Source: Bacillota bacterium | Lineage (GTDB): Bacteria > Bacillota > Bacilli > Alicyclobacillales > SLC66 | Direction of reading: 5' to 3' | DNA: 45,610 nt | Assembly: GCA_021805735.1 (NCBI GenBank) | Contig: JAJZEE010000023.1 | Location: 1-45,610 of the forward strand | Shown: piece by piece, positions 2,838 to 39,054 of the stretch | Layout of the letters: every line of letters begins with the position of its first letter | Numbering within the stretch: position 1 is the first letter of the stretch | Translations under genes and position numbers: made by a program | The notes under the pieces: model-generated | Told to the model about the DNA's origin: nothing | Seen by the model: the letters and a program-made list of their open reading frames with translations, nothing else | Databases searched by the model: none

Positions 2838-4187
2838 TCACCTCACAAACGCGCTCAAGTTTGTGGTGGCTACCGCGATCACCATTGAGAAGAAGAACAT
2901 CAGACCGACTGCAGCCAAGGCGGCAAACACCAACACGAGACTCTTTCCTACTGTCGCGAGACTGGTGATGACCGGCGAATCGCCGAGCGGTTGCAGTATT
3001 GCCGCAGAACCGCTGTACACGACGGACAGAGCCAGAATCTTTAGCGCCGGAAAAGCACAGATCAGCAACAGCACCACAGCGCTCGCCACGCCCGTCGCAT
3101 TCTTCACGATCAGTGAAGCGCCCGCTATCGATTCCGAAGCGTCCGACAGGGCCTTCCCGATGACGGGAACAAAAGTGCTGGCCACGAACTTTGCGCTGCG
3201 CAGAGTGACTCCATCGGCGATGCTGGCCAGAGATCCCTGTACGGACATGATGCCTAGAAAGGAGCTCATCCCGATCCCCAAAACCGCCAACGTTACATTG
3301 CGGATGAAGCCGGCCAGTTCGGTGACTCGATAGCGACCCGAAACGGCGCTCACAATAGTCAGGACAGCCGAGAAGAAGATCATTGGAAACACCCAACTGT
3401 GCACCACAAGTCCCATTGCGTTTACGATAAACACGATCAGCGGATGAAACGCCGCCGCGGAAGTCAGTCCGCCTGACGCGGTGATAAGAGCGAGCACAAC
3501 TGGCAGGGAACCGAACATGACTGCCGTCATGGTATCGATCGCCCCACCCGCGTACTGGGTCGCCTCTCGAAACGACGATATCGCCAGTACAATCAACACG
3601 AGATGGACGACCCAAAAGGCAACCTTGCTCACCAACTGTGACGCAAATGCTGTCTGCACCGTTTCCAGAATCGCGGACAGCACAGTCAAAATGATGATGA
3701 CGCCGAGCAGCCGCGCATTCTCCCACAGGACGTTAAAAAAGTAGCGGACCAGCCCCTGCGCGAGTTTGTCAAACGGAAGACCCTGATTGCCAGGAAAAAA
3801 GGCGGGTACAAATTGACCCTCAGGGCTTGCCGGCACGTAGCCGCCATAGGTGGTATCGAGATTGTTCCAGGCTTTCTCGATGGCATTTCCTGAGATCGCC
3901 TGATACTGTGACGTTTCCCGTTGCAGCGGCGACGGCACAGCGGCAACAGAACTGGAAGCGACCGATCCTGTGTCTGTGATTCCCGTGCTGATGCCTGGCG
4001 CAGAGGTTGCCGCGCCTGCGGACACTCCCGCAGAAGCTGGCGGCGGTTCCCCCGACACGCCCGGCCCCATGCCGCTCGCGTACGCGACCGGAACACTATG
4101 CAAACAGGCAACGACAAACAGAACTGCCAACAATCGTCGCACCTCGGTGACGCGAAACCGCTGCAACCTGCGGCGAGCCATCGTCAC
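2838..4187 (-). CDS. spoIIIAE: Stage III sporulation protein AE, polytopic membrane protein
   Basis: A 449-residue protein. An N-terminal signal-like segment (about 19-38, ending PVAYASG) is followed by a Gly/Pro/Ser-rich extracytoplasmic stretch (about 39-125) and then about seven to eight hydrophobic segments ending near the C-terminus (FFFSMVIAVATTNLSAFVR). SpoIIIAE is the large permease-like subunit of the mother cell-forespore complex. It is separated from spoIIIAD by an unusual 299-nt gap holding two structured repeats, in an operon otherwise tightly packed. Confidence 0.93.
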   Translation of the reverse strand: MTMARRRLQRFRVTEVRRLLAVLFVVACLHSVPVAYASGMGPGVSGEPPPASAGVSAGAATSAPGISTGITDTGSVASSSVAAVPSPLQRETSQYQAISGNAIEKAWNNLDTTYGGYVPASPEGQFVPAFFPGNQGLPFDKLAQGLVRYFFNVLWENARLLGVIIILTVLSAILETVQTAFASQLVSKVAFWVVHLVLIVLAISSFREATQYAGGAIDTMTAVMFGSLPVVLALITASGGLTSAAAFHPLIVFIVNAMGLVVHSWVFPMIFFSAVLTIVSAVSGRYRVTELAGFIRNVTLAVLGIGMSSFLGIMSVQGSLASIADGVTLRSAKFVASTFVPVIGKALSDASESIAGASLIVKNATGVASAVVLLLICAFPALKILALSVVYSGSAAILQPLGDSPVITSLATVGKSLVLVFAALAAVGLMFFFSMVIAVATTNLSAFVR

Positions 4188-4219
4188 TCCCCCTATCCCG
4201 GAAAATGTTCCTGCCGACC

Positions 4220-4289
4220 GGATTCATATGCTGTGCCCCTGCTCAGACACGGCTGCGCCGAACTCGCGACGGGCACAGCATATGAATCC
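4220..4289. repeat. Hairpin repeat, copy A (19-bp perfect stem, conserved loop)
   Basis: Arms 4220-4238 (GGATTCATATGCTGTGCCC) and 4271-4289 are perfect inverted repeats around a 32-nt loop containing CACGGCTGCGCCGAACTCGC. It is preceded by TATCCCGGAAAATGTTCC and followed by a smaller hairpin near 4299-4320 (TTTTGC TTC GCAAAA). The same loop with a different but self-complementary stem recurs at 4363-4435 and, more diverged, at 38244-38322. It lies in the spoIIIAD-spoIIIAE gap and contains no gene. Confidence 0.85.
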
Positions 4290-4362
4290 TGGCGAAGTGA
4301 GATTTTGCTTCGCAAAACTCAGACATGGCCGTATATCCCGGAAAATCGATCGTCTCTGCCCG

Positions 4363-4435
4363 CCGGAATCGTATGCTGCGCCGCTTCTCAAACACGGCTG
4401 CGCCGAACTCGCCTCGGCACAGCATTCGATTCCGG
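4363..4435. repeat. Hairpin repeat, copy B (18 of 20 bp paired, conserved loop)
   Basis: Arms 4363-4382 (CCGGAATCGTATGCTGCGCC) and 4416-4435 pair at 18 of 20 positions around a 33-nt loop that matches copy A over CACGGCTGCGCCGAACTCGC. The upstream flank repeats TATCCCGGAAAA and adds CGTCTCTGCCCGCC, which also precedes copy C. The downstream flank GCGGGTTTTTCATTCC resembles that of copy C. Copies A and B are about 140 nt apart in the same orientation. Confidence 0.85.
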
Positions 4436-4486
4436 CCAAGCGGGTTTTTCATTCCACTGACGGCGTTGCCCAGAGGCATGCGGGTC

Positions 4487-4873
4487 TTATGGGAGCAAAT
4501 GAGTCACCGTTTCCACAACCGCTGTCACAATGGGTACCGCGAGTACCAGGATGGCCAGTTTCCCAACGAGCTCGATCTTGCCTGCAATTGAGCTGACGCC
4601 TGCGTCACGCGCGATCTCAGCCCCGAACTCTGCGATATACGCGATGCCGATGATCTTTATAATGGTGGCGAAAAAGAGCACGTTCACATCAGCCAAGGCG
4701 GCCAGTCTTTCTATCGGAGCAAGAATCCCTGTGACCCGCTGCAACGCGATCAGGAAAAGCACCGCGGAAATCAGCAGAGTCAGCAAAAAGGACACTTGCG
4801 GTGCAAGTTCGCGGACAGACGTCAGGAGCAGGGCTCCGACGATACCAAACAAGACGATTTGCAAGATGTCCAT
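4487..4873 (-). CDS. spoIIIAD: Stage III sporulation protein AD
   Basis: A 128-residue membrane protein (MDILQIVLFGIVGALLLT...) with about four hydrophobic segments, a core membrane part of the SpoIIIA complex. The ATG at 4873 follows AAAGGTG by 6 nt and matches the family N-terminus. The frame is open further upstream, but that part overlaps spoIIIAC. An intergenic region with repeats follows before spoIIIAE. Confidence 0.93.
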   Translation of the reverse strand: MDILQIVLFGIVGALLLTSVRELAPQVSFLLTLLISAVLFLIALQRVTGILAPIERLAALADVNVLFFATIIKIIGIAYIAEFGAEIARDAGVSSIAGKIELVGKLAILVLAVPIVTAVVETVTHLLP

Positions 4874-4883
4874 AGCCGCACCT

Positions 4884-5087
4884 TTATTGATTTGCGAAGA
4901 CATTTTGAATTTGCACGAACAGATGGCCAATATTGGAAACTACCACCGCCGCCACAAGAACGAGCGCACTGATGGTCACAAGCGTTGCGATTTCATCACG
5001 ACCTGACTGTTTGAGCAGACTGGACAGTACAGCTGCGGCGATACCCACGACAGCGATTTGAAATAATACGTGCAACTCAAGACTCAT
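4884..5087 (-). CDS. spoIIIAC: Stage III sporulation protein AC
   Basis: A 67-residue protein with two membrane segments (about 6-23 and 34-55) separated by KQSGRDEIATL, the typical SpoIIIAC arrangement and length. Ribosome site AAGGAGGA lies before the ATG at 5087. It sits between spoIIIAB and spoIIIAD in the operon. Confidence 0.93.
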   Translation of the reverse strand: MSLELHVLFQIAVVGIAAAVLSSLLKQSGRDEIATLVTISALVLVAAVVVSNIGHLFVQIQNVFANQ

Positions 5088-13458: not shown

Positions 13459-13498
13459 AAAAAACAAAAAGAGACACCGAAAAAACATCCGGTATCTC
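13459..13498 (-). terminator. Riboswitch expression-platform terminator before gcvT
   Basis: On the minus strand GAGATACCG (13498-13490) pairs with CGGTGTCTC (13479-13471) around a T-rich loop, followed by TTTTTGTTTT. It lies between the second glycine aptamer and gcvT and is the obvious intrinsic terminator to be relieved when glycine is bound. GAGGAGATACC, overlapping the 3' end of aptamer 2, could take part in an antiterminator. Confidence 0.8.
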
Positions 13499-13697
13499 CT
13501 CTGTCCCTTTACCTGAGAGTTCCCTTCGTCGGTCGCCCAATCACCAAGACGAAGTTTCCCCGTTGGTGGCCACACTGCGCACTCTCCAGAGAGGCGTCCA
13601 ACCGCGGTACTTTTACCTGAGAGATTCACACTGCAAGACCGCTCTTGCCGCTTGCTCCTTCGGCGACGGCTCTGTTGCGCCGTTCTCTCCCGCGACT
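13499..13697 (-). promoter_or_regulatory. Tandem glycine riboswitch
   Basis: Two glycine aptamers in a row on the minus strand. The first runs from CGGGAGAGAAC through GCCGAAGGAGCAA to CTCTCAGGTAAAAG. The second runs from CTCTGGAGAGTG through CCGACGAAGGGAA to CTCTCAGGTAAAGGGACAGAG. Both contain the conserved core and the A-rich 3' side of the class. It precedes gcvT and ends at a terminator, so glycine should switch the degradation operon on. Confidence 0.95.
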
Positions 13698-13724
13698 GTC
13701 ATCCGCATATGCCATTGTATTCTT

Positions 13725-25978: not shown

Positions 25979-26089
25979 GCAAGAACACGAGAGACAAGCG
26001 GTCATAGGAGCGTGGGGGAGATGAACAGCCTTGAACGAGAACATGGCAAGCGCGAGAACACGAGAGACAAGCGGTCATAGGAGAGTGGG
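25979..26089. repeat. 38-nt direct repeat, two copies with a 35-nt spacer
   Basis: Copy 1 (25979-26016) and copy 2 (26052-26089) match at 36 of 38 positions over GCAAGAACACGAGAGACAAG and the following CGGTCATAGGAGCGTGGG. The period is 73 nt. They lie between comGA and the JAMM gene, outside any supported gene. The cause is unknown: regulatory site pair, duplication, or relict of a mobile element. Confidence 0.85.
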
Positions 26090-26103
26090 CGACGAGGACT
26101 GCA

Positions 26104-26574
26104 TTACGGAGCGGCGATGTCCAGCGGAACCGGTTGCGCGCAGTATCCCTCCTCTGTGCGATGATATTTGTACACTCGACAGGCAGGCGCGCCCTGGCGA
26201 AAGTTGACCACGATGTGGAGCACCTCGCGATATCCGTAGGCGTTTTGCAGATCAGTATGTGATGGTTCCCCATTGCCATCTGGATGACTGTGCACAGTAG
26301 CGACGACGCGCCTTCCTTCCCGGTCAGCACGCAAGATAGCGCGGGTCGCGTGGACCGCGCGCGCCAGATACCGATGCGTTGACGGCAACGCCCCTTCAAG
26401 CGGCACGAACTCATCACCGTAAAATGTGTCGTCGACGCGATCGCCAATGAGAATGCCTCCACTTTCAAACGGCAACCACTGTGATACATGCCGGCCAATT
26501 GCCTCCAGCGCGTGAACGGTCACGATCAGGGCGCGCCGATCGCCGCCATCGCGCTGATTGCCTTCCCACTCCAC
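26104..26574 (-). CDS. JAMM/MPN+ family metalloprotease-like protein
   Basis: A 156-residue protein with a complete JAMM zinc motif: Glu37 (FESGGILIG) and HSHPDGNGEPSHTD giving His95, His97, Ser105 and Asp108 with exact HxHx7SxxD spacing. Bacterial members remove peptides from ubiquitin-like carriers such as ThiS/MoaD or act in amino-acid or sulfur metabolism. No such carrier is nearby. The GTG start at 26574 follows GAGGAAGTG and overlaps the Nudix gene by 49 nt, so both come from one transcript. The substrate is unknown. Confidence 0.85.
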   Translation of the reverse strand: MEWEGNQRDGGDRRALIVTVHALEAIGRHVSQWLPFESGGILIGDRVDDTFYGDEFVPLEGALPSTHRYLARAVHATRAILRADREGRRVVATVHSHPDGNGEPSHTDLQNAYGYREVLHIVVNFRQGAPACRVYKYHRTEEGYCAQPVPLDIAAP

Positions 26575-36364: not shown

Positions 36365-38136
<1,772 letters not shown>

Positions 38137-38243
38137 TAGTGTACCACGTTCGCGAACTGTGCGCTCGTTCAAATTGTGATCAACCTCGCAATCCCTGTCC
38201 GTATCGTGTAAATCCGTCTCTGCCCGCCGAAAATGTTCCTGCT

Positions 38244-38322
38244 GGTCGGAGTCATATATTGCGCCCCTGCTCAGACAACGCTGTCGCTAAACTCGCGACG
38301 GGCGCAATATATGACTCCGACC
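38244..38322. repeat. Hairpin repeat, copy C (23-bp perfect stem, conserved loop)
   Basis: Arms 38244-38266 and 38300-38322 are perfect 23-nt inverted repeats (GGTCGGAGTCATATATTGCG...). The 33-nt loop matches copy A at both ends (CTGCTCAGACA ... AACTCGCGAC) but differs in the middle. The left flank CGTCTCTGCCCGCC and AAAATGTTCCTGC, and the right flank TTTTCATTCC plus TATCCCGGAAA (38400), recur around copies A and B. A further ATGGCGC/GCGCCAT hairpin lies near 38373-38392. It occupies the maf-radC gap. Confidence 0.85.
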
Positions 38323-38398
38323 TGAGCGGGCTTCGCACCGGTGAAAAACTCGCGGCGCCTTTTCATTCCCTGATGGCGCGGCGCAGCGCCATGAAAGT

Positions 38399-38971
38399 CT
38401 ATCCCGGAAACTCATAGCCTAGTTCGGTCAGAAAACGCGCGGTCAAGGCAAGCGGAAGACCGACCACGGCATAGTAATCGCCCTCGACGCGCTCGACAAA
38501 CCGCGCGCCGACTCCCTGTATACTGTAGGCGCCAGCCTTGTCAAGAGGTTCGCCCGATTGCACGTAGGAGATGACTGCATCCTCGCTCATGGGCGCCATG
38601 ACGACGTTCACGCGGCGGTGCCCAAGCCGCGACTGACCGTTCGCGTCCAGCACTGCGACGCCAGTGACTACCTCATGACGCTGGCCCTGCAGGGCGCCAA
38701 GCATACGCTTCGCGTCAGAAGGGTCCAGTGGTTTTCCATAGATCTCCCCGTCTTTCACTACGATCGTATCGGCCCCAATTACCCAGGCCTGCATCCCAGG
38801 TTGGACCACAGCTCGCGCCTTTCTGAGGGCTAACGTTTCAACTGCTTGACAAGGGTCAAAATCGACTGGAAACGTTTCATCCGCCTCAGGAGTCACCACC
38901 TCGTGTTCCACACCAATTTGCGCCAACAATTGAGTTCGTCTCGGCGAACTCGAAGCTAGAATGACCTTCAC
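38399..38971 (-). CDS. maf: Maf-family nucleotide pyrophosphatase
   Basis: A 190-residue house-cleaning pyrophosphatase for modified or non-canonical nucleotides. ASSSPRRTQLL is the N-terminal phosphate-binding motif; GADTIVVKDGEIYGKP holds the catalytic Asp. The GTG at 38971 (GGGGG 10 nt upstream) gives the usual length; the ATG at 39019 gives a longer N-terminus. The 3' end abuts the flank of hairpin copy C. Confidence 0.93.
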   Translation of the reverse strand: MKVILASSSPRRTQLLAQIGVEHEVVTPEADETFPVDFDPCQAVETLALRKARAVVQPGMQAWVIGADTIVVKDGEIYGKPLDPSDAKRMLGALQGQRHEVVTGVAVLDANGQSRLGHRRVNVVMAPMSEDAVISYVQSGEPLDKAGAYSIQGVGARFVERVEGDYYAVVGLPLALTARFLTELGYEFPG

Positions 38972-39054
38972 TTCCGAACATCCCCCGTTTGCATCCTTTT
39001 CCACTTGTACCATTCCCAAGGAAAGAACAATCTATGTTTGTCTTTGTTATCGGC

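What the first reader, a model, noticed from the sequence alone, without database searches (positions are those of the whole stretch)
4188..4486. Hairpin repeat family with conserved loop and covarying stem
Copies A (4220-4289), B (4363-4435) and C (38244-38322) share a related loop of about 33 nt, but their stem arms differ with compensating changes: for example arm position 4 is T-A, A-T and G-C in the three copies, position 7 is A-T or G-C, and positions 11, 12 and 15 also change as pairs between A and C. This implies selection on the folded RNA or ssDNA, or a mobile palindrome that spreads and repairs its arms against each other. I recognise no named repeat family.
Basis: partly seen in the sequence, partly recalled or inferred. 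Interest (0 to 1): 0.82.

Follow-up and report, generated by a model that had tools for sequence, protein, structure and literature searches.

The report
Mobile hairpin repeat with rewritten stems
About a hundred copies of a small hairpin sit between genes in this bacterium; they share an almost fixed core inside stems whose sequence changes on both sides at once, and relatives often carry a different hairpin at the same place, so it is a good natural system for asking how genomes keep hairpins paired.

Summary
Copies A, B and C belong to a family with 117 exact motif matches in this 3.76-Mb genome (reversed-pattern control 1). The constant part is a two-sided internal loop, CTCARACA...AACTCGC, around a small variable inner hairpin. 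It sits in a 19-30 bp outer stem that covaries: 98.5% of cells paired against 71.9% shuffled; all 16 tested pairs change on both sides. The core recurs in relatives in other stems and, in one genus, another framework. Strong matches were found only in this taxonomic family.

The hairpin is part of a small repeat with a second hairpin, whose short forms insert beside CTAT without another target duplication. No autonomous partner or REP transposase was found. Between species 95% alike, 40 sites are shared, but the hairpin class differs at 16 (12 of 26 under tighter matching). At the spoIIIA site of the finding, a more distant congener has another class. One copy has a 5' arm rewritten as the exact complement of its 3' arm.

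Best reading: a REP-like mobile repeat whose whole hairpins are rewritten in place by exchange between copies and by arm-templated correction. What reads the core is unknown.

The parts
4193..4205 (+). Left end of the first repeat unit, CTAT followed by CCCGGAAAA
   Evidence: Exact match to the left-end pattern, one of 40 in the genome
4220..4289 (+). Hairpin copy A, class A (arms 4220-4238 and 4271-4289)
   Evidence: 19 of 19 arm pairs; fold z -6.3
4242..4267 (+). Conserved core of copy A: CTCAGACA, inner hairpin CGGC-TGC-GCCG, AACTCGC
   Evidence: Motif search of the whole genome
4298..4321 (+). Second hairpin of the first unit, TGAGATTTTGC-TT-CGCAAAACTCA
   Evidence: Read from the sequence; same hairpin in many other copies
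4337..4346 (+). Left end of the second, head-to-tail unit, CCCGGAAAAT after TAT
   Evidence: Read from the sequence; aligned with the first unit
4363..4435 (+). Hairpin copy B, class B (arms 4363-4382 and 4416-4435)
   Evidence: 18 of 20 arm pairs; fold z -4.7
4387..4412 (+). Conserved core of copy B
   Evidence: Motif search
38244..38322 (+). Hairpin copy C, class C with stem extended to 23 bp (arms 38244-38266 and 38300-38322)
   Evidence: 23 of 23 arm pairs; fold z -8.7
38270..38296 (+). Conserved core of copy C, inner segment ACGCTGTCGCTA
   Evidence: Motif search
38390..38402 (+). Right end of the unit carrying copy C, CATGAAAGTCTAT
   Evidence: Exact match to the right-end pattern, one of 60 in the genome

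Best explanation
This is a REP-like, non-autonomous mobile repeat. A unit starts after CTAT with CCCGGAAAAT, carries the long hairpin with its conserved core, then a second small hairpin, and ends in CATGnnnGTCTAT. Units insert next to CTAT and can stack head to tail. Once in place, a site persists, but its hairpin is overwritten as a whole by exchange with other copies, so each genome drifts to its own favoured stems. Imperfect stems are also perfected by copying one arm from the other during replication. The arms need only pair. The internal-loop core is probably the part read as a single strand (RNA or ssDNA) by a protein. Shown: the family, the covariation, unit insertion, hairpin turnover at shared sites, one arm-copying event, fixed core orientation. 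Inferred: gene conversion as the exchange route, template switching as the repair route, and protein recognition of the core.
For: Copy number 117, 59 and 117 in three congeners. Covariation on 86 distinct copies: 98.5% of cells paired (shuffled 71.9), 16 of 16 pairs with double changes, score 0.773 against 0.237, 0 of 500 shuffles. Five unit-boundary insertion differences at CTAT between G000 and JA1.bin52. At 40 shared sites with flanks 95.0% identical, class differs at 16 and 7 hairpins are identical; at the same-class sites compared, 13 arm pairs changed on both sides and stayed paired, 13 on one side, 1 on both sides otherwise, 391 unchanged, and the core changed at 4 of 582 bases. The stricter set gives 12 of 26 with a different class; the mean ortholog hairpin distance (0.125) equals that of paralogs within JA1.bin52 (0.126). 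The same A-T to C-G double change separates the species at five unlinked sites. L030 has a 30-bp perfect stem whose 5' arm carries extra bases that complement its 3' arm. At the spoIIIA site G001 has a class-C hairpin behind the same left end.
Against: No transposase or autonomous copy was found, so the mobilising enzyme is unknown. Within-G000 paralogs are more diverse (0.178) than orthologs (0.125), and orthologs are closer than random pairing (0.160; p 0.001 over 2000 permutations), so homogenisation is partial. No donor tract was traced. Some class differences may be two neighbouring hairpins rather than one replaced: up to 350 bp was allowed, about 60 bp. The five equal changes do not say in which species the spread happened. 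In G052 a mismatch is fixed in 11 of 15 copies, so arms are not always repaired.
Confidence: 0.6

Rival explanations
1. A cis-acting structured RNA in intercistronic regions. The hairpin is transcribed with its neighbours, read as 5'-GUCGCGAGUU-[inner hairpin]-UGUYUGAGCAG-3', and selection on the RNA keeps the stem paired, for example to protect or process the upstream message.
For: Flanking co-directional genes read the strand opposite to the motif in 51 of 72 G000 placements against 6 of 72 in the other direction (p 6e-10). The core never lies inverted behind a left end (26 of 26 hits, not deduplicated; by outer marks 204 forward, 2 reverse, 23 ties of 229). Sites persist at 85-94% flank identity. 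Covariation is strong.
Against: At shared sites whole classes swap, 8 of 13 double changes are transversions that cannot pass through G.U, units are present or absent between sisters, and no shared gene function was seen in the flanks looked at. The strand bias could come from purging copies whose T-run (GCGGGTTTTT) would stop transcription, or from replication strand; in the 8-kb test mixed gene pairs gave 8 with and 6 against the neighbourhood.
Confidence: 0.25
2. A classical GTAG-type REP/BIME mobilised by a RAYT transposase.
For: High-copy intergenic palindromes; in G052 the right end reads CTAC, that is GTAG on the other strand; GTAG REPs also have sub-families with alternative complementary stem residues (PMC3733652).
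Against: 0 of 59 genomes of the order have a RAYT over the cut-off, while the control search over 14 known genomes rang over it in one. Stems are 19-30 bp and the core 26-36 nt, against 5-13 bp and 2-20 bp in that paper. Tandem units are in one orientation (32 of 32), not alternating.
Confidence: 0.07
3. Intrinsic transcription terminators that look alike.
For: In + orientation a stem is followed by GCGGGTTTTTC.
Against: In G000 and JA1.bin52 pooled, 98 placements have both neighbours reading the other strand and 10 the terminator strand; 22 are convergent. The T-run can pair with an A-run in the outer stem.
Confidence: 0.04

Closest known systems
GTAG- and CGTC-tagged REPs / BIMEs (Di Nocera 2013, PMC3733652; abstract and passages read)
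   Same: High-copy intergenic palindromes, sub-families with alternative complementary stem residues, mostly near unidirectional or convergent genes, probably transcribed
   Different: Much longer stem and structured core, no RAYT, units in the same orientation, CTAT rather than GTAG in this genus, and in Bacillota ('Firmicutes' does not occur in that paper)
IS200/IS605-derived miniature elements (insertion rules recalled)
   Same: Insertion beside a short fixed tetranucleotide without other duplication, hairpins near both ends
   Different: The IS200/IS605 copies looked at in this genome have unrelated ends
Template-switch maintained RNA hairpins (Monttinen and Loytynoja 2022, PMC8794818; abstract and passages read)
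   Same: Multi-base complementary stem changes and arm-to-arm copying
   Different: Described on RNA genes; here on a dispersed repeat where whole hairpins also swap between loci, and core inversion, which that paper reports as a by-product, is not seen
Mitochondrial double-hairpin elements (recalled, not read)
   Same: Two hairpins in a small mobile unit
   Different: Host, sequence and size; comparison not made here

Membership tests
GTAG-type REP mobilised by RAYT | RAYT transposase in the genome | tested here: not met
   0 of 59 genomes over the NF047646 cut-off
GTAG-type REP mobilised by RAYT | GTAG tag next to a 5-13 bp stem | tested here: not met
   Tag is ATAG on that strand in this genus, GTAG in G052; long hairpin stem 19-30 bp
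GTAG-type REP mobilised by RAYT | Multiple, mostly extragenic palindromic copies | tested here: met
   117 matches; 10 of 184 motif hits in G000 and JA1.bin52 loci overlapped a called ORF
IS200/IS605-derived miniature element | Insertion 3' of a fixed short site, no other target duplication | tested here: met
   Five unit-boundary differences at CTAT; whether CTAT belongs to the unit or is a 4-bp duplication is not settled
IS200/IS605-derived miniature element | Ends shared with an autonomous copy encoding TnpA | tested here: not met
   IS200-like copies have other ends; right ends without an upstream left end gave no transposase unit
Rfam family | Score at or above a curated threshold | tested here: not met
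   Only the glycine riboswitch reached threshold in the window; permissive hits to the hairpins were miRNA, BTE and snoRNA models far below their thresholds
Intrinsic terminator | Stem followed by T-run on the transcribed strand | tested here: not met
   T-run mostly on the untranscribed strand
Integron attC site | R and L boxes with integrase | not tested
   No search made

The most novel reading that the evidence does not exclude
The conserved core is the recognition site of a dedicated, still unknown system that copies whole hairpins into existing sites, so that a hairpin 'homes' onto its relatives; the same core has been captured by unrelated small elements in different genera.
Probability: 0.12. 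Interest if true: 0.85.

Novelty: new variant of a known kind. Interest (0 to 1): 0.58.

Why it matters
Compensatory changes are usually taken as proof of selection on an RNA. Here they arise at least partly by swapping whole hairpins and by copying one arm from the other, and the same sites can be compared between close relatives. That gives a natural test of how much covariation is mutation process and how much is selection. The core, kept in stems that otherwise differ, points to an unknown binding partner.

Tried and rejected
Rejected: Rfam membership; RAYT-driven REP; ordinary IS200/IS605 copies as parents; an autonomous copy between distant left and right ends (the 16 right-end hits printed were short units, long units, remnants or chance matches); terminator; leader peptide (the core falls in different frames in classes A and B, read by eye); hammerhead ribozyme and kink-turn (considered by eye, key bases vary; motifs recalled, no call); a virus source (0 exact matches in viral contigs); wider spread (1 of 398 genomes of the phylum at up to 3 mismatches, own genome only; covariance model in 3 of 398 of the class, all in this family, G001 and G052 not in that sample).

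Weak or against: the excess of C.A over G.T one-sided states on the + strand (66 against 15 cells, my count, inflated by descent; about 23 against 15 as distinct events) fits a fold on the other strand, but also a strand bias of mutation of the kind that GC skew shows, so I do not use it. A first orthology test against G001 found 0 shared sites because its distance limit was too tight; a looser one found 6 of 25 by both flanks and 2 by one, a one-to-one version 2.

Dropped rows: 11 of 233 motif hits with arm score under 15, among them 3 clearly unrelated ones, were left out of alignment A3, which took 86 of the 146 distinct remaining sequences. The first DNA search scored only 40 of 135 candidates. 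Of 117 G000 motif matches 100 were listed; 99 regex copies, allowing one mismatch, were in hand.

Not in print, as far as searched. Searches returned only unrelated papers at the top, and the core string gave 0 papers. Most subscription journals are not in that library.

Full report
What is there. The window is a whole 45.6-kb contig of a 3.76-Mb genome in 170 contigs. Copies A and B lie between genes matching spoIIIAD (4487-4930, minus) and spoIIIAE (2838-4187, minus); C lies between maf (38399-39019, minus) and radC (37456-38172, minus).

A genome-wide family. The motif CTCARACA-N8..26-AACTCGC has 117 matches in this genome (control 1), 59 and 117 in two congeners, 18 in G052 and 5 in G057 of the same family; the other genomes of the order have 0 to 2, which is background. 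A covariance model finds 11 of 11 scored candidates in G057. Outside the family nothing convincing was found. The nearest named genome is the MAG Bacillota bacterium JA1.bin52; it appears to be G002, since two fetched stretches are 100% identical. I did not identify the species of the window.

Anatomy. In the motif orientation: outer 5' arm, CTG, CTCARACA, inner hairpin, AACTCGC, GAC, outer 3' arm. Inner hairpins differ: CGGC-TGC-GCCG (classes A and B), a short GCG/CGC-type stem (class C), a stem of about 8 bp (class D), and one of about 6 bp in G052 (stem lengths read by eye). In G057 the same core sits in a different stem and a different framework. On 86 distinct copies the 16 outer pairs tested are 98.5% paired, all 16 show changes on both sides, and no shuffle or slid version comes near. 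RNAalifold finds 19 of 22 pairs with double changes.

The carrier. Around the hairpin lies a framework: CTAT, CCCGGAAAAT, CCTGCC, the hairpin, GCGGGTTTTTCATTCC, a second hairpin, CATGnnnGTCTAT. G052 has the same layout with CTAC. A short form carries CGCCGCAGGCG in place of the long hairpin; ten left and right ends lie 72-74 bp apart (counted by eye). Comparison with JA1.bin52 shows units present in one genome and absent in the other with boundaries at CTAT: L019/L132, L024/L117, L027/L074, L145/L076, L147/L110. Neighbouring short units and hairpins point the same way (32 of 32).

Hairpin turnover at fixed sites. With both flanks matched, 40 sites are shared one to one between G000 and JA1.bin52 (flanks 95.0%); 7 hairpins are identical and at 16 the class differs. 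With a tighter position limit the class differs at 12 of 26. L030/L069 and L015/L114 show near-identical surroundings and a swapped hairpin. L015 and L024 are mosaics of classes A and B. The same double change, A-T in G000 and C-G in JA1.bin52, is found at L007/L109, L017/L078, L020/L073, L021/L107 and L022/L108; JA1.bin52 has 8 copies of that form and G000 none among those in hand. G001 is more distant (flanks about 85-94%): 6 of 25 of its copies match a G000 hairpin site by both flanks, and class differs at 5 of these 6 by eye. At the spoIIIA site G001 has the same left end and a class-C hairpin with 17 of 19 arm pairs; at site C it has a class-C hairpin with another inner segment. This supports partial concerted evolution. 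It is partial because orthologs remain closer than random pairs (0.125 against 0.160, p 0.001 by permutation).

Arm repair. In L030 the 5' arm continues the palindrome to 30 bp by carrying the exact complement of its 3' arm, with extra bases absent from its JA1.bin52 counterpart. Seven class-C copies have the stem extended from the usual 19 bp to 23 bp: three of 14 in G000, among them window copy C, three of 22 in G001 and one of 3 in JA1.bin52. At same-class shared sites 8 of 13 double changes are transversions; 6 of the 13 come from one site, L033/L084, and five others are the repeated change named above. Template switching that perfects imperfect palindromes is known (PMC8794818, abstract and passages read).

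Strand. Flanking genes mostly run against the motif strand: 51 '--' against 6 '++' in G000, 47 against 5 in JA1.bin52, 15 against 2 in G001, 6 against 2 in G052. The species share sites, so these are not independent, and the genes come from my own ORF caller. The core is never inverted behind a left end (26 of 26 hits, overlapping loci not removed). This favours a strand-specific role, but purging of terminator-like orientations and replication strand remain possible. Where the two flanking genes disagree, the hairpin agreed with its 8-kb surroundings in 8 of 14 cases; where both read the hairpin's sense strand, in 28 of 29; where both read against it, in 0 of 2.

Comparison. It behaves like a REP-type repeat but fails the RAYT test, the stem-size range and the alternating layout (PMC3733652, abstract and passages; PMC2817692, passages; PMC12306157, passages). 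I file it as a new variant of dispersed mobile palindromes.

Noticed in passing
13493-13702: Two glycine riboswitch aptamers in tandem on the minus strand, the second just over threshold.
   Followed up: no
37456-39019: This stretch is 100% identical to G002 over 1564 bp although most shared loci are about 95% identical, which suggests recent exchange or assembly mixing.
   Followed up: partly
25979-26105: A 54-nt direct repeat, 83% identical, 73 bp apart.
   Followed up: no
L018, L160 and their counterparts L073, L106: Another inserted family of 113-142 bp with GGAACCTGTGAAAAAGTCCGG...CACAG and a GCGTTTGAGGCTTTAATCAAACGC hairpin, present in one species and absent in the other.
   Followed up: no
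L081, L109, L180: Short tandem repeat arrays beside or within the hairpin units; the first two differ in number between species.
   Followed up: no
L047-L054: Several IS200/IS605 copies, one followed by a group II intron-type reverse transcriptase frame (the reverse transcriptase is named by eye).
   Followed up: partly
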